Source of the DNA: Kordia algicida OT-1
GTDB lineage: Bacteria; Bacteroidota; Bacteroidia; Flavobacteriales; Flavobacteriaceae
Assembly (NCBI RefSeq): GCF_000154725.1
Contig: NZ_DS544873.1
Coordinates: 3,237,397 to 3,301,396 of the forward strand
Reading direction: 5' to 3'
Length of the DNA stretch: 64,000 bases
Program-made: the position numbers and the translations under genes
The notes under the pieces: model-generated
Told to the model about the DNA's origin: nothing
Seen by the model: only the letters and a program-made list of their open reading frames with translations
Database searches by the model: none
Shown here: positions 2,910-36,625 of the stretch, one piece after another
Position numbering within the stretch: position 1 is the first letter of the stretch
Layout: each line of letters begins with the position of its first letter

Positions 2910-3137
2910 TTAATAAAGACCATTATCTATTGGACACGTCATACAACTAACGTCAGAAGCCGGGCAATTGTCATTCGTTTTGCAGTGTTTGTTATTCGTA
3001 CACACACAAGATGTTGTTTGACACGACCCTACTTGAGTTGCACAATCTACACCGCTTCCTCCAAGTATAGCACTCCCATCAAGATTTGAAATTGATTTTT
3101 TGTTAAGTGTTAACGTTTTTAAATTCTTTTTTTTCAT
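2910..3137 (-). CDS. GG-leader RiPP-like precursor peptide (class I lanthipeptide-type leader)
   Basis: A 75-residue peptide. The leader begins MKKKNLKTLTLNKKSISNL and ends at a double glycine (AILGG, residues 23-27), the pattern of the Bacteroidota class I lanthipeptide-type leader (lysine-rich, L-x-L-x-K, then I-S-x-L). The following core of about 48 residues is rich in Cys (8) and Ser/Thr, ending CMTCPIDNGLY. This fits a ribosomally made, post-translationally modified peptide, but no modification enzyme is near. It is one of seven such genes in the window. It is convergent with marC and isolated by about 300 bases from the next gene. The leader class is recognised from memory; whether it is modified or exported is not shown. 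Confidence 0.75.
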   Translation of the reverse strand: MKKKNLKTLTLNKKSISNLDGSAILGGSGVDCATQVGSCQTTSCVCTNNKHCKTNDNCPASDVSCMTCPIDNGLY

Positions 3138-26025: not shown

Positions 26026-26265
26026 ATGAAAAAACAAAATTTCCAGAAAAAGCTCGCTTTTAAAACGACTAAAATTTCACATGTATCTTATTTGAATACC
26101 GTTCGTGGAGGTGCTGCAGCCAGATTTACAGAGAATCCGTGTATTATTTCTGATGTAGATACCTGCCAAACAGTGACAGAACCTATAAAACTTACTGAAG
26201 CAATTCGCTGTACGCATACAATTGGAAACGGGCAAAACCCTGATGGAACACCGTGTAAGTTTTGA
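26026..26265 (+). CDS. GG-leader RiPP-like precursor peptide
   Basis: A 79-residue peptide. The leader (MKKQNFQKKLAFKTTKISHV, then a GG in NTVRGG at residues 25-30) follows the same lysine-rich K-x-L-x-F/L-K-x-x-K-I-S plan as the other peptides of the window. The core of about 49 residues has four Cys (NPCIIS, DTCQTV, IRCTHT, TPCKF) and many Thr. It is monocistronic, on the opposite strand from the TonB receptor, with a TACTTTTA element 27 bases before its ATG. No enzyme for modification or export lies nearby. Confidence 0.7.
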   Translation: MKKQNFQKKLAFKTTKISHVSYLNTVRGGAAARFTENPCIISDVDTCQTVTEPIKLTEAIRCTHTIGNGQNPDGTPCKF

Positions 26266-31515: not shown

Positions 31516-32832
31516 ATGAGTACAAAATCAGTTCCTTACGTAGCTTATAAAGTTAAAGATATTTCTTTAGCAGCATGGGGAAGAAAAGAGATCGAATTAG
31601 CCGAAGCAGAAATGCCAGGATTAATGAGTCTTCGTGAAGAATATAAAGATGAACAACCGTTAAAAGGCGCAAGAATTGCTGGATGTTTACACATGACTAT
31701 CCAAACTGCTGTTTTAATTGAGACTTTAAAAGCACTTGGTGCAGAAGTAACTTGGAGTTCTTGTAATATTTTCTCAACACAAGATCAGGCTGCTGCCGCT
31801 ATTGCTGATGCTGGAATTCCAGTATACGCATGGAAAGGAATGAACGAAGAAGAATTTGATTGGTGTATTGAACAAACATTATTTTTTGGAGAAGATCGCA
31901 AACCATTAAACATGATTTTAGATGATGGTGGAGATTTAACAAATATGGTTTTAGATCGTTACCCAGAATTGGTTGATGGCATCAAAGGTTTATCTGAAGA
32001 AACAACTACAGGTGTACACAGATTATACGAAAGAATGAAAAATGGTACGTTGCCAATGCCAGCCATTAACATTAACGATTCTGTTACAAAATCTAAATTT
32101 GATAATAAATACGGATGTAGAGAAAGTGCTGTAGATGCAATTCGTCGTGCAACGGATGTTATGTTAGCAGGAAAAAGAGTTGTTGTTTGTGGATACGGAG
32201 ACGTAGGAAAAGGAACTGCTGCTTCTTTTAAAGGTGCAGGAAGTATTGTTACCGTTACTGAAATTGATCCAATTTGCGCATTACAAGCTGCAATGGACGG
32301 TTTTGAAGTTAAGAAATTAGAAAATGTTGTTGGAAATGCTGATATCGTAATTACAACAACAGGAAACAAAGATATCGTTACTGGAAAGCATTTTGAAGCA
32401 ATGAAAGACAAAACGATTGTTTGTAATATTGGACATTTTGATAATGAAATTGCTGTTGCTTGGTTAAATGACAACCACGGAGATACAAAAGTAGAAATCA
32501 AGCCACAGGTTGATAAGTATACCGTAAACGGAAAAGACATCATTTTATTAGCCGAAGGACGTTTGGTAAACTTAGGTTGTGCTACAGGTCACCCAAGTTT
32601 TGTAATGAGTAATTCATTTACAAACCAAACATTGGCACAAATTGAACTTTGGAATCATTCAGACAAGTACAAAAATGAAGTGTACATGCTACCAAAACAC
32701 TTAGATGAAAAAGTAGCTCGTTTACACTTAGCAAAAATTGGCGTTGAGTTAGAAGAACTTTCTACAGATCAAGCGGAATATATTGGTGTAACTGTAGAAG
32801 GTCCATACAAGCCAGAATACTACAGATACTAA
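31516..32832 (+). CDS. ahcY: adenosylhomocysteinase
   Basis: A 438-residue enzyme that splits S-adenosylhomocysteine into adenosine and homocysteine, removing the product inhibitor of methyltransferases. NAD-binding motif [17 protein letters not shown] and substrate motifs [37 protein letters not shown] and the C-terminal [12 protein letters not shown] are intact. The length is that of the short (no 40-residue insertion) class. It has its own promoter and a strong terminator. The upstream neighbour runs divergently. Confidence 0.99.
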
Positions 32833-32854: not shown

Positions 32855-32888
32855 AAAAGCCTTTTATCGTTTTTGATAAAAGGCTTTT
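32855..32888 (+). terminator. terminator after ahcY
   Basis: AAAAGCCTTTTATC and GATAAAAGGCTTTT form a perfect 14-bp stem with a 6-base loop, followed by T-rich sequence, about 23 bases after the stop codon. Confidence 0.85.
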
Positions 32889-32968: not shown

Positions 32969-34663
32969 ATGAGATTCATTTCCTGTATTACTTTATTGCT
33001 TATTTTATGCTGTTGTGAAAACGTTTCTGCCCAGGAAAATGATTCACTGCTAAAAAAAAGCTATCAAGCATTAAAAGATGGATACCGAAATTTAGCATAT
33101 TCAAAACCTAAAATCGCCGAAAAATACGCCGAAGCATTATTCACAAAAGCTACTAATGCAGGCAATATACTGGAGCAACATGAAGGTATTTTATTGCAAG
33201 CATCTTCTAAAAATTATTTTGGTGATATGGATGCGGCTTTAAATCACATCAATATCGTAATTCTTTATGCCACACGAGAAAAAAATGATAGCTTACTCAT
33301 TAAAGCAACAAGTCAAAAAGGAAAAACATATTTTACATTTGGCAAATATAAGGACGCCATTTACTTCTATTTACAGTTGGACGCTTTGGCGAGAAAAACA
33401 AAAAACATTCGTTATCAGATTTACTCAAATCACAGTATTGGTTCCATCAAAAATATTATGGGCGATCATGAAGGCGCTACAGCGTTGTTTTTGAAAAATA
33501 AAGAAATCATCACACCAATTATAGAAGAAAAAAAATATCACACATTATACTTAAACACATTGATCGGATTGATTTCTGCTTACACGTATGTAGATGTTGA
33601 AACTGCTGCTGAATATTTACCCGAACTTAAAGAAATGAGCATTGCACAAAAAGACACAGATGCATTGAGTTATTATTTTACCCTACAAGGAATTGTTGAT
33701 TATATGCGGAAAGATTATGACAAATCACTGACGGTTTTACACAAAGCCGATAGCTTAGTCTCTCTATTGGGAACAAAACGAAATTTATATCCTATATGTC
33801 GCTTTCGCGGGAAAACATACTATGAAAAAAAGATGTTTCCGGAAGCAATTACCGAATTTGAAGCGATAAAATCATTACAGAAAGAAATTGAGTTTGACGA
33901 TTTTAAATTCAGAGAAGTACTTTCATTACTAGCAAATAGTTACGAACAGATTGACAGCACAGACAAAGCATTGGAAAACTATCGCTTTGCACACGATTTT
34001 GCCTATACAGATACCATTCAAAAGCAAATTACTCATACGAATACTATTTTAAAAGAATATGACACAAAAACATTAGAAGATAAAATTTCATCTTTACAGC
34101 TTACTTCTAAACGAAAAGAAAAACAAAACAAATCCTTACTTTTTATCTCCATCGGATTGCTTATTTCGCTTGTTGGACTATTTCTTGCCTATAAAAAACT
34201 ACAACGCAACAACAAGAAAAAATTTGATGAGTTGTTGCAAAAACTTTCAACGGAACCTTCCAAAAAAGATGTTTCGGAAGCAACTATAAATAAATTTCAA
34301 ATTTCTGATGAAAAAGTTGCTACTATCTTAGAAGGCTTGGAAAAGTTTGAAAAATCAGAAGCATTTCTACATAAAAATACAAGTTTGGTTTCCGTTGCCA
34401 AGAAATTAAATACAAATACTTCATATTTATCTCAAATCGTAAACGAACACAAAGGGCTTACATTCAAAAAATACATTACACAATTGCGCATCAATTATGT
34501 ATTGCATGCCTTAAAAAATGATAAAGTGTTGCGATCGTATAGCATCAAAGCGATTGCTAAAGAATTAGGTTTTAAAAGTGAAGGTGCTTTTTCGAGAGCA
34601 TTTAAAAAACAAACAGGCATTTATCCTTCATTTTTCATCAAAAATCTTACCGCTATTTCATAA
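32969..34663 (+). CDS. membrane-anchored TPR-AraC transcriptional regulator
   Basis: Start chosen at 32969, where MRFISCITLLLILCCCENVS gives a signal peptide; an earlier in-frame ATG at 32873 lies inside the ahcY terminator. The 564-residue protein has a periplasmic region of tetratricopeptide-like helices (about 25-375), one membrane segment (LLFISIGLLISLVGLFLAY, about 388-406) and a cytoplasmic AraC-type HTH pair (about 455-555, with LVSVAKKLNTNTSYLSQIVN and KELGFKSEGAFSRAFKKQTG). It can therefore sense something outside the cytoplasm and act on DNA. It is 76 bases upstream of the four-peptide operon. Confidence 0.92.
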   Translation: MRFISCITLLLILCCCENVSAQENDSLLKKSYQALKDGYRNLAYSKPKIAEKYAEALFTKATNAGNILEQHEGILLQASSKNYFGDMDAALNHINIVILYATREKNDSLLIKATSQKGKTYFTFGKYKDAIYFYLQLDALARKTKNIRYQIYSNHSIGSIKNIMGDHEGATALFLKNKEIITPIIEEKKYHTLYLNTLIGLISAYTYVDVETAAEYLPELKEMSIAQKDTDALSYYFTLQGIVDYMRKDYDKSLTVLHKADSLVSLLGTKRNLYPICRFRGKTYYEKKMFPEAITEFEAIKSLQKEIEFDDFKFREVLSLLANSYEQIDSTDKALENYRFAHDFAYTDTIQKQITHTNTILKEYDTKTLEDKISSLQLTSKRKEKQNKSLLFISIGLLISLVGLFLAYKKLQRNNKKKFDELLQKLSTEPSKKDVSEATINKFQISDEKVATILEGLEKFEKSEAFLHKNTSLVSVAKKLNTNTSYLSQIVNEHKGLTFKKYITQLRINYVLHALKNDKVLRSYSIKAIAKELGFKSEGAFSRAFKKQTGIYPSFFIKNLTAIS

Positions 34664-34739
34664 AATGAAGGCATGTCTTTTTCGTTTCAGCCTAGGTAAT
34701 ATCTATCTTTAAGAAAAAGTTTATACTAATTCTTATACT

Positions 34740-34946
34740 ATGAAAAAACAAGATTTTACTTTAGTTTCCTTAAAATTAAAAAAAGTTAGCATTTCAAATC
34801 TTACCATTGCAGGTGGCGCAGACGCTCCCGAAACTAATGAAGTTGATTGTTTTACTGAATTTCCACACTGTCAATATACAATAACCACAAGACCTGACAG
34901 CCTAAATCACGCGGATGAAGGTAAAGATGATGCAGGACATATGTAA
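34740..34946 (+). CDS. GG-leader RiPP-like peptide 1 of the peptide operon
   Basis: A 68-residue peptide. The leader runs MKKQDFTLVSLKLKKVSISN and ends at LTIAGG (residues 21-26), with the L-x-L-x-K, V-S-I-S plan of the family. The core of about 42 residues has only two Cys (VDCFTEFPHCQY) and an acidic, His/Asp-rich end, so it is the least cysteine-rich of the group. It is the first gene of the operon; a TATCTTTA element lies 29 bases upstream of its ATG. The preceding gene is the TPR-AraC regulator. Confidence 0.75.
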   Translation: MKKQDFTLVSLKLKKVSISNLTIAGGADAPETNEVDCFTEFPHCQYTITTRPDSLNHADEGKDDAGHM

Positions 34947-35044
34947 CACCTCTTTTTTATAAAACGAAGTTTCGTTTGATTGCGTACACTAAAAATACAT
35001 TCTAATTTCATGTCACTAAAAACTCCCAAAAATTTTTAAAGATT

Positions 35045-35251
35045 ATGAAAAAAAAGAATGTTCATTCTAAGTTAAATTTAAAAAAAGCTCCTATTGCTGA
35101 CTTAACTAATAAAAAAGTTACAGGAGGTTTGGCAAAAGACACTTTGCAAAGAGGTTGTGCATCCTATCCGTATCGATGTTCAATACAGGAATGCGTGTAT
35201 ACAGATGTTACTTGCTACCATACCGAAACATGTCAAAGACCAAGAAATTAA
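35045..35251 (+). CDS. GG-leader RiPP-like peptide 2
   Basis: A 68-residue peptide. The leader (MKKKNVHSKLNLKKAPIADL) ends at KVTGG (residues 25-29). The core of about 39 residues has six Cys (RGCASYPYRCSIQECVY, TCYHTETCQR) with Ser/Thr and is Tyr-rich. It follows peptide 1 by 98 bases and precedes peptide 3 by 19 bases. Confidence 0.78.
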   Translation: MKKKNVHSKLNLKKAPIADLTNKKVTGGLAKDTLQRGCASYPYRCSIQECVYTDVTCYHTETCQRPRN

Positions 35252-35270
35252 CCTTAAAACCAATAAAATT

Positions 35271-35465
35271 ATGAAAAAATCAAAAATCAAACTTCACCTC
35301 AACAAGCAAAATGTTTCTACTCTAAAAATTGATGAGATAAAAGGAGGTGTTTCTGGACGTACTTGCGATTTTACAAACAAATACTACAAAACATGTTATT
35401 CTCCTTGTACTCCTCAACCAACCTGGAACGATTGTGAAAATACTCAGGTAATCTGTGACCATTAA
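35271..35465 (+). CDS. GG-leader RiPP-like peptide 3
   Basis: Start chosen at 35271 (MKKSKIKLHLNKQNVSTLKI), which matches the leaders of its neighbours; a longer in-frame start at 35157 would lie inside peptide 2. The 64-residue product has GG at residues 25-26 (DEIKGG). The core of about 38 residues has six Cys (TCDFTN, KTCYSPCTP, DCENTQVICDH). The gene lies 19 bases after the stop of peptide 2 and 32 bases before peptide 4. Confidence 0.8.
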   Translation: MKKSKIKLHLNKQNVSTLKIDEIKGGVSGRTCDFTNKYYKTCYSPCTPQPTWNDCENTQVICDH

Positions 35466-35497
35466 AAATTAAATAAACCTTTTAAAACGTTAACCAA

Positions 35498-35665
35498 ATG
35501 AAAAAAAAGAATGTAAATAAATTAAAACTAGAGAAAAGCACTATTTCAGATTTCAAAGCGGTAAAAGGAGGAATTGGCTGGGCATCTATTCCTCATACAG
35601 ACTGTGTTTGTTGGTCACGACCAGCAGATCCTGTGTGGTCAAATATTGGCTGCAGCCCAAGTTAA
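35498..35665 (+). CDS. GG-leader RiPP-like peptide 4 (55 residues)
   Basis: A short gene, found by its leader: MKKKNVNKLKLEKSTISDF and VKGG (residues 22-25), the same K-x-L-x-L-x-K-x-x-I-S-x-F plan. The core of about 30 residues is IGWASIPHTDCVCWSRPADP plus a short end, with three Cys and three Trp and no Lys. It closes the operon; a strong terminator follows 30 bases later. Confidence 0.75.
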   Translation: MKKKNVNKLKLEKSTISDFKAVKGGIGWASIPHTDCVCWSRPADPVWSNIGCSPS

Positions 35666-35694
35666 CGATACGCAGATCATAGATCTTTAGGTAA

Positions 35695-35728
35695 ACTTTT
35701 ACCAAACGAATTTTAGTTTGGTAAAAGT
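35695..35728 (+). terminator. terminator of the four-peptide operon
   Basis: ACTTTTACCAAAC and GTTTGGTAAAAGT form a perfect 13-bp stem with an 8-base loop, followed by TTTTTTT. It defines the operon end. On the minus strand an A-rich left side could also help end the caspase-like gene. Confidence 0.85.
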
Positions 35729-35747
35729 TTTTTTATAAAATAATTTC

Positions 35748-36503
35748 TCAATACCCTGTGACCAACAAACCTCTTGCGCCACGCATACCACATTTTTGGT
35801 ATTTGTGATACGCCTTTGCAGCACGTTCGCGAATTTCTGCATCAGATTCGTTTAAAATCCAACCATCAATTGCCCATTTTAGCGTATATGCTTCGGGCGA
35901 CATCAATCCTGTAGACCAAACTAACAGATTTGCACCTGTTTGCTGTACATACGGTTTAAAATAATTTTTACTAATACATGCTAAAATAATTACATCGCGC
36001 TTTTTATTGTTTTTGGGTGAAAACTTTGTATCTAAAGTAAACTCCATTAAACCATCATGACCAATATACGCGACTAAATCTGCACCTCCACCAAAATTTA
36101 TTTTTTGATGGTTGATGGTTATTTCTTCAGAATTTGCTCCGCTACTCGCTTGTAAAAAGTCGATCGTTGTTTGTTTAATATACTTTCCATCATATGCATC
36201 AGCCAACAAATATGTGTCAGAAGTTTTGTGTTTGAAAAGAACACGTTCTAGTATTTTTGAGTTTTTTGAGGGAATCGTTTTTATAAATTCCCAATCTTTA
36301 CTGCGCTTAAAATATGTTTTCATTCCATACAACGCGCCCCAATACAAATTTGTTTGTGGATTTTGACCGTTTCCTAATGATTTTGGCACTGGCACAATTC
36401 CCTGATGTATATTATCGCACAACGCTACAAACACATGAATTTTCTTTTGACCAAAAACTGAAAAACTAATGCAAAAAAGTAAAATGGTAAAAAATGATTT
36501 CAT
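35748..36503 (-). CDS. exported caspase-like protein (clan CD-type), putative
   Basis: Start chosen at 36503 (MKSFFTILLFCISFSVFG, then a signal cleavage near Gln19); earlier in-frame ATGs at 36506 and 36581 would put extra residues before the signal. The mature part of about 230 residues has a His motif VAYIGHDGLMEF and a Cys motif VIILACISKNYFKPY, in the order and spacing of the His/Cys dyad of caspase-like peptidases (metacaspases, gingipains). A later segment GANLLVWSTGLMSPEAY is consistent with a C14-like fold. The fold is inferred from the dyad only; it could be an inactive relative. It is convergent with the peptide operon. Confidence 0.6.
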   Translation of the reverse strand: MKSFFTILLFCISFSVFGQKKIHVFVALCDNIHQGIVPVPKSLGNGQNPQTNLYWGALYGMKTYFKRSKDWEFIKTIPSKNSKILERVLFKHKTSDTYLLADAYDGKYIKQTTIDFLQASSGANSEEITINHQKINFGGGADLVAYIGHDGLMEFTLDTKFSPKNNKKRDVIILACISKNYFKPYVQQTGANLLVWSTGLMSPEAYTLKWAIDGWILNESDAEIRERAAKAYHKYQKCGMRGARGLLVTGY

Positions 36504-36625
36504 CATGTGTCGGTTTTTGTGAATGTATACTATACAAACGTGTTGAATATACAATTCGTATAGAACGTTAAAATCATTCATAAAATTTAAAAAAATAGTA
36601 TCTTGTTGTACTAATTAACTATAAA

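What the first reader, a model, noticed from the sequence alone, without database searches (positions are those of the whole stretch)
34740..35728. A four-gene operon of divergent Cys-rich GG-leader peptides with no maturation genes
Seen: four consecutive small genes with the same leader plan (lysine-rich, L-x-L-x-K, I/V-S/A, double Gly) but unrelated cores of 30-42 residues with 2, 6, 6 and 3 cysteines, closed by one strong terminator. Known: this leader type belongs to Bacteroidota class I lanthipeptide-like precursors. Inferred: a diversified peptide family served by one enzyme set encoded elsewhere. No LanB/LanC, YcaO, radical-SAM partner or peptidase-ABC transporter is seen within 28 kb on either side. 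The last peptide (55 residues) is easily missed.
Basis: partly seen in the sequence, partly recalled or inferred. Interest (0 to 1): 0.8.

Follow-up and report, generated by a model that had tools for sequence, protein, structure and literature searches.

The report
Peptide genes paired with membrane regulators
A marine bacterium of the genus Kordia carries four small secreted-peptide genes right behind a membrane-bound gene regulator, one of many such regulator-and-peptide pairs in these bacteria, which look like private signals and receptors wired to a very large store of peptide products probably made with one shared set of enzymes.

Summary
The four peptide genes are real, at the stated coordinates, with the stated leader plan; cysteines in the cores are 2, 5, 5 and 3, not 2, 6, 6 and 3. 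The genome is Kordia. So 'one enzyme set elsewhere' is supported; that Kordia is RiPP-rich was already in print. Kordia genomes have 15-48 matches to it; 63 of 79 examined (77 of 79 with weaker leaders) have a GG-leader peptide gene starting 68-208 nt downstream, against 8 of 93 other genes. Aquimarina: 19 of 21. Peptide 1 keeps the motif TRPDS beside the same regulator in 10 of 10 genomes that have it; peptides 2-4 come and go. Best reading: peptide 1 is the secreted ligand of its neighbouring receptor, peptides 2-4 are regulated cargo. Ligand function is inferred, not shown.

The parts
32969..34663 (+). Membrane regulator: N-terminal signal-peptide-like segment, TPR solenoid (about residues 32-346), hydrophobic helix (about 388-410), AraC-type HTH at the C-terminus (564 aa from this ATG; the ORF list gives an alternative TTG start at 32873)
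   Evidence: HTH_18 1e-17 and TPR_12 2e-9; model mean pLDDT 91.2, pTM 0.69, with TPR-type helix pairs, long helix, HTH; hydropathy peaks at the N-terminus and 176 residues from the C-terminus
34704..34711 (+). Promoter-like element TATCTTTA, 36 nt before the ATG of peptide 1 (one mismatch to TAnnTTTG, the flavobacterial -7 consensus, recalled)
   Evidence: in 77 regulator-peptide gaps the looser TAnnTTYR occurs in 48 (shuffles 0.386 per gap) and strict TAnnTTTG in 28 (shuffles 0.077); 31 of 77 gaps have a looser site 31-40 nt before the ATG
34740..34946 (+). Peptide 1: leader of 26 aa ending Gly-Gly (34740-34817), core of 42 aa with 2 Cys and TITTRPDSL; proposed ligand of the upstream regulator
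   Evidence: same position and motif in nine sister genomes
35045..35251 (+). Peptide 2: leader 28 aa, core 40 aa, 5 Cys; among the 10 sister stretches matched only in G003 (76% identity)
35271..35465 (+). Peptide 3: leader 26 aa, core 38 aa, 5 Cys; relatives in G001, G002, G003, G009 and weakly G008
35498..35665 (+). Peptide 4: leader 25 aa, core 30 aa, 3 Cys; weak relatives in G009 and G003
35693..35730 (+). Terminator-like inverted repeat with T-run
31516..32832 (+). Adenosylhomocysteinase, left anchor of the syntenic locus
   Evidence: TIGR00936 1.6e-194; found in 6 of the 10 sister stretches fetched
35748..36581 (-). Conserved protein without Pfam match, right anchor of the syntenic locus
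   Evidence: no family; a match in 11 of 11 Kordia genomes

Best explanation
The stretch is a receptor-and-peptide cassette followed by cargo. The regulator at 32969-34663 sits in the inner membrane with its TPR solenoid in the periplasm and its AraC-type domain in the cytoplasm. Peptide 1 is made as a GG-leader precursor, trimmed and exported by a C39-type ABC transporter, and binds the TPR groove of its own neighbouring regulator, which then switches on the promoter between the regulator gene and peptide 1, and so peptides 2-4. Peptides 2-4 are cargo, most likely thioether or disulfide peptides, modified by the single LanB/LanC set 143 kb away. Shown: gene order, pairing, domain plan, conservation of peptide 1 beside the regulator, turnover of the rest, one LanB per genome. 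Inferred: topology, export by C39, binding, autoinduction, and modification.
For: Pairing: 63 of 79 regulators from 11 genomes have a leader-scoring ORF within 300 nt downstream, same strand, gap median 90 nt, range 68-208; other genes of the same loci 8 of 93, opposite strand 3 of 79. With a looser rule 73 of 79, opposite strand 5 of 79, shuffled downstream DNA 2 of 790, own-genome non-regulator ORFs 12 of 167. Both rules together give 77 of 79. Loci in G006 and G010 hold the regulator and peptide 1 with no other leader peptide between the anchors. Ten genomes (own and nine sisters) have a regulator 65-100% identical at this locus, and in 10 of 10 a peptide with T[ILV][TS]TRPDS follows it at about 76-78 nt: eight aligned, G008, G001. 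The eleventh, G007, has the regulator broken by stops and no leader peptide in the 8 kb fetched. Regulators fall into 30 clusters at 50% identity; in the six clusters of four or more the paired peptides share cluster-wise motifs. In 8 of 8 named Kordia LanB loci the next large gene after LanB is such a regulator, followed by its peptide. Outside Kordia: Aquimarina 19 of 21. The TPR profile matches the peptide-binding quorum receptors RapF (1.6e-16) and NprR (2.9e-13), and Foldseek has a phage Rap solved with pheromone at rank 37, E 2e-4. One LanB in 11 of 11 genomes.
Against: No binding, expression or mass data. Co-divergence does not single out the sensor: the peptide core follows the HTH domain (partial rank correlation 0.289) more than the TPR sensor (0.108), so co-inheritance explains it. 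The best structural and sequence matches of the TPR part are eukaryotic scaffold and engineered TPRs, not Rap-type receptors. A clear N-terminal hydrophobic peak was seen in 49 of 77 regulators only (the inner helix in 77 of 77). TRPDS-type peptides also occur as extra copies without a regulator of their own directly before them: one in G001, one in G008. In the own genome only 8 of 15 pass the leader-HMM rule, and leaders of regulator-adjacent peptides are not separable from the rest beyond shuffled labels (AUC 0.70, shuffles up to 0.79). Leptobacterium 1 of 5 and Lacinutrix 1 of 4 show the pair, and 10 of 15 regulators in the Aquimarina LanB loci. Upstream of regulators 16 of 76 also have a leader peptide.
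Confidence: 0.5

Rival explanations
1. All four are ordinary lanthipeptide-type precursors (bacteriocin-like), and the upstream regulator is a local switch that senses something else, such as a host or algal compound; it sits beside a precursor gene because it controls it.
For: Same leader type for all four; peptide 1 also has two cysteines and hydroxy residues; extra copies of the peptide 1 type exist without an adjacent regulator; AraC-type regulators commonly act on neighbours (established knowledge); core relatives of scattered Kordia precursors lie inside LanB clusters of Aquimarina and Lacinutrix.
Against: Pairing is one regulator to one peptide at short distance across 30 regulator clusters, also where no other precursor follows; peptide 1 keeps its core motif while peptides 2-4 turn over.
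Confidence: 0.3
2. The peptides are not modified by LanB/LanC at all: they are exported by a C39 transporter and fold through disulfides as secreted Cys-rich peptides; the LanB set serves only a minority of precursors near it. (This concerns the chemistry and can hold together with the signalling reading.)
For: None of the four reaches the curated cut-off of the lanthipeptide leader family; more than 100 substrates for one LanB is a heavy load; 97 of 103 other own-genome precursors have at least two Cys, which suits disulfides as well.
Against: LxLxK leader with GG is the published class I leader of this phylum (PMC7268733, passages); near-identical cores of other Kordia precursors sit beside LanB in other genera.
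Confidence: 0.3
3. The peptide beside each regulator acts inside the cell or in the membrane as an antagonist or stabiliser of the regulator rather than as a secreted signal.
For: Tight genetic pairing fits any regulator-cofactor pair.
Against: A GG leader implies export by C39 transporters (established knowledge); the sensor is predicted periplasmic.
Confidence: 0.1

Closest known systems
Bacteroidota class I lanthipeptide precursors with LxLxKx5L-GG leaders (NCBIfam NF038153; described in PMC7268733)
   Same: Leader plan, double Gly, Cys-rich variable cores, C39 transporter and LanB with LanC in the genome
   Different: Precursors scattered over the chromosome, far from the one LanB; all four below the curated score; peptide 1 tied to a regulator
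RiPP-rich Kordia genomes reported by the TrRiPP study (PMC11118758)
   Same: Genus and scale: up to 176 precursors in a Bacteroidota genome, Kordia named as RiPP-rich, LanC beside nucleotidyltransferase noted
   Different: Its main text holds none of the words AraC, TPR, tetratricopeptide, quorum, regulator or receptor, so the pairing is not described there; supplements were not seen
Prochlorosins (class II, many LanA, one LanM; named in passages of PMC7268733)
   Same: One enzyme set, many precursors encoded far from it, conserved leader and unrelated cores
   Different: Class II enzyme, other leader family, other phylum
RRNPP quorum-sensing receptors of Gram-positives (Rap, NprR, PlcR; plan recalled)
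   Same: TPR receptor encoded beside its small secreted peptide; profile match to RapF and NprR
   Different: Here the receptor is membrane-bound, with AraC-type output and sensor outside the cytoplasm; peptides have GG leaders instead of Sec signals

Membership tests
Bacteroidota class I lanthipeptide precursors (NF038153) | Leader scores above the curated cut-off of 22 bits | tested here: not met
   14.4, 19.0, 7.4 and 10.1 bits
Bacteroidota class I lanthipeptide precursors (NF038153) | LxLxK motif and Gly-Gly at the leader end | tested here: met
   sequence and alignment
Bacteroidota class I lanthipeptide precursors (NF038153) | LanB and LanC encoded in the same genome | tested here: met
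   one LanB N-domain, separate C-domain gene, LanC beside it; not in the same cluster as these genes
Bacteroidota class I lanthipeptide precursors (NF038153) | Dehydrated Ser/Thr and thioether rings | not testable with these tools
   needs mass spectrometry
RRNPP peptide receptors | TPR peptide-binding domain | tested here: inconclusive
   TPR repeats are there with RapF and NprR profile matches, but eukaryotic and engineered TPRs match better; peptide binding not tested
RRNPP peptide receptors | Cytoplasmic receptor, peptide re-imported (recalled) | tested here: not met
   signal-peptide-like start, inner hydrophobic helix and C-terminal AraC-type HTH
RRNPP peptide receptors | Cognate peptide gene adjacent | tested here: met
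   63 of 79, or 77 of 79 with weaker leaders; that it is cognate is inferred
RRNPP peptide receptors | Receptor binds the peptide and changes transcription | not testable with these tools
   experiment needed

The most novel reading that the evidence does not exclude
Kordia and Aquimarina carry a dozen to several dozen private peptide channels per genome: each is a membrane one-component receptor (periplasmic TPR, AraC-type output) with its own GG-leader, possibly thioether-modified, pheromone, and together they control a pool of more than a hundred RiPP precursors that, in Kordia, share one LanB. This would be a peptide quorum-sensing class of Gram-negative Bacteroidota that the paper searches made here did not turn up.
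Probability: 0.42. Interest if true: 0.87.

Novelty: new variant of a known kind. Interest (0 to 1): 0.72.

Why it matters
Peptide signalling is well known in Gram-positives; a large, multiply paralogous receptor-peptide family in marine Bacteroidota would give that phylum its own peptide language and could explain how genomes with over a hundred precursors choose which to express. The pairs give immediate, testable ligand guesses for otherwise orphan TPR-AraC regulators, and a handle for waking silent peptide genes.

Tried and rejected
Rejected: that the genome might hold several LanB sets (one N-domain in 11 of 11). Rejected as proof of ligand binding: co-divergence of peptide core and sensor; the Mantel test is positive (0 of 500 permutations) but the HTH correlates more, so co-inheritance suffices. 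Rejected: a clear split of leader types in the own genome (AUC 0.70, maximum of 100 shuffles 0.79); genus-wide counts do differ (LxLNK 4 of 77 against 47 of 103; [TS]xR[PTD] 35 of 77 against 11 of 103), but the 77 are related by descent and come from 11 genomes, the 103 from one. The own-genome census of 109 leader ORFs came from 112 after three without a clear GG were dropped, and from the fetched stretches only; five loci were turned the wrong way, mended. The 130-143 count is from the whole-genome search, where at most 150 candidates per genome were scored. The alignment A2 contains the four window leaders, so their scores are circular; the NF038153 scores are not. Family comparison: NF038153 at E<=0.01 in 12 of 199 Flavobacteriaceae genomes: 25 in each of two Kordia (37 candidates scored), 14 in one other, 1 to 3 in the remaining nine. 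Paper searches for TPR-AraC plus GG-peptide pairs that turned up no description; only open-licence full text is held, so absence is weak. PMC10352776 (passages) suggests that separate TPR proteins in Bacteroidales RiPP clusters might act after pheromone binding; PMC8939145 (passages) lists TPR proteins of unclear role beside graspetides. Papers seen: PMC7477175, PMC10734526, PMC7268733, PMC10352776, PMC8939145 as passages; PMC11118758 as passages plus one section and a word search; all others as search listings.

Full report
What was checked. The four ORFs are where the finding says, with the leader plan it describes. Core cysteine counts are 2, 5, 5, 3, so two of the four counts given were wrong. 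An inverted repeat with a T-run follows the last gene. Against G003 relatives peptides 2 and 3 show dN far below dS (dS is near saturation), so they are coding genes under constraint. No Pfam family matches any of the four above its cut-off, and NF038153 (class I lanthipeptide leader) is below its cut-off in all four.

The genome. The window is C1:3237397-3301396 of a 5.03 Mb single contig. Closest named LanB sequences are Kordia, 89-94% identical; the species was not determined. With NF038153 there are 97 places at E<=10, 19 over the cut-off, and with a leader alignment of 84 own-genome leaders 143 at E<=1 and 130 at E<=0.001. In the genus 11 of 11 genomes, own included, have 109-150 such places, 150 being the number scored per genome. 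In the wider family NF038153 rings in 12 of 199 genomes, two of them Kordia. There is one LanB N-domain (C1:3416113-3418083) in the own genome and one in each of 11 genomes. Its cluster reads sigma-70-like factor, TPR protein, LanC, LanB N-part (759 aa), LanB C-part (304 aa), and, after a regulator and peptides, HlyD and C39-ABC on the other strand. Cores nearly identical to some scattered Kordia precursors lie beside LanB in other genera: the MCNxV...GGIGCH cores at C1:3302427 and 3302170 match Aquimarina loci L111 and L112, and the SVNQTCTGM core at C1:1567731 matches Lacinutrix locus L104. This supports LanB substrates among the scattered precursors, though not for the four in question.

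The regulator upstream. The gene ending 76 nt before peptide 1 has TPR repeats and an AraC-type HTH. From the ATG at 32969 it starts with a signal-peptide-like segment and has one further hydrophobic helix 176 residues before its end; across 77 regulators the inner helix peak is in 77 and a clear N-terminal peak in 49. The model (76 sequences, mean pLDDT 91.2, pTM 0.69) shows a TPR solenoid, a long helix and the HTH. Topology is inferred from this, not measured.

The pairing. The own genome has 19 regulator matches, 17 distinct genes. By eye 15 of 17 have a GG-leader-like ORF within 130 nt downstream, some of them weak; the other two matches lie in short frames of 249 and 156 aa. I then took regulators from all 11 genomes: 79 of at least 400 aa with at least 700 nt downstream, out of 305 matches counted, of which 150 or so were listed. 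The sample is the listed matches of G002, G004, G005, G006 and G010, the own genome, and some of the rest, so it leans to closer relatives. By leader HMM 63 of 79 have a peptide within 300 nt, gap 68-208, median 90; other genes of the same loci 8 of 93; opposite strand 3 of 79; upstream 16 of 76, where tandem modules lie. By a looser rule 73 of 79, with 5 of 79 on the opposite strand, 2 of 790 shuffled and 12 of 167 for non-regulator ORFs of the own genome. Taken together 77 of 79. The HMM was built from own-genome leaders, some regulator-adjacent, so it is partly circular there; yet the own genome scores lowest (8 of 15). Outside Kordia, 30 loci of 99 matches: Aquimarina 19 of 21, Lacinutrix 1 of 4, Leptobacterium 1 of 5, opposite strand 1 of 30; one Psychroserpens genome had no match, and one Aquimarina record was not held. 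In the Aquimarina LanB loci alone 10 of 15 regulators have one. In 8 of 8 named Kordia LanB loci the next large gene after LanB is such a regulator with a peptide just behind it.

Peptide 1 against the others. The locus is anchored by adenosylhomocysteinase on the left and a conserved protein on the right, the latter in 11 of 11 genomes. Ten genomes have a regulator 65% or more identical to the window's here (own included), and in 10 of 10 a peptide with T[ILV][TS]TRPDS follows at about 76-78 nt. In the eight aligned a C[CF][ST]xxxxC block precedes the motif; the G001 copy lacks it, so TRPDS is the firm part. Further copies of this type stand without a regulator directly before them in G001 and G008. 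G006 and G010 have peptide 1 alone. Peptide 2 is matched only in G003, peptide 3 in G001, G002, G003, G009 and weakly G008, peptide 4 weakly in G009 and G003. Second regulators in the locus bring their own peptide with another motif, such as CPTT[LIV][TD]PR[TA]D. In G007 the regulator is broken and no leader peptide was found in the 8 kb fetched. Strict TAnnTTTG (flavobacterial -7 consensus, recalled) is in 28 of 77 regulator-peptide gaps, shuffles 0.077 each; 17 of 77 gaps have it 31-40 nt before the ATG. So many of these peptides likely have their own promoter; the window's element is a one-mismatch version.

Mechanism. Best reading: peptide 1 is exported and sensed by the periplasmic TPR domain of its neighbour, which activates the promoter of peptide 1 and the cargo. 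Against it: no binding data; sensor-specific coupling is not seen; TPR matches lead with eukaryotic scaffolds and engineered TPRs, with RapF and NprR further down. The main rival is that the regulator senses something else and merely sits beside the precursor that it controls.

Known and new. The leader type and C39 link are published for Bacteroidetes class I precursors (PMC7268733, passages); the RiPP wealth of Kordia, up to 176 precursors in a Bacteroidota genome, and LanC beside nucleotidyltransferase are in PMC11118758 (passages and one section), whose main text does not hold the words AraC, TPR or regulator. I found no description of the TPR-AraC and GG-peptide pairs in eight searches. 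I therefore rate the four genes themselves as members of a known kind and the regulator-peptide pairing as a new variant.

Noticed in passing
L048 7045-10475 (C1:3082044-3085474): APH-type kinase, HopA1-like protein and LanC-like protein in a row, with a subtilase upstream: the gene set recalled for class V lanthipeptides. No precursor was looked for.
   Followed up: no
L046 8781-10737 and L050 7798-9615: LanC-like gene paired with a nucleotidyltransferase gene, each near a leader peptide gene; the second LanC is matched mainly over its first half. The pairing is already mentioned in PMC11118758.
   Followed up: partly
window 2910-3137 (-) and 26026-26265 (+): Two further GG-leader Cys-rich peptide genes of the same family inside the window, 75 and 79 aa.
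   Followed up: no
L094 4588-4749 (C1:3018587-3018748): Small peptide with a different, bacteriocin-like GG leader shortly before a C39-domain match.
   Followed up: no
L049 10941-12857: Five near-repeat precursors with a shared core plan close together.
   Followed up: no
Aquimarina loci L110-L113, L116 and those among L198-L226: Many regulator-adjacent peptides have their own leader style (KKLTIARI...IKGGSS), different from the LanB-clustered precursors beside them.
   Followed up: partly
Leptobacterium G214 C1:1054560-1066600 and C4:279059-284036: Runs of TPR-AraC regulators with small gaps between them; in the C4 run only the last of three is followed by a peptide gene by the rule used.
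   Followed up: no
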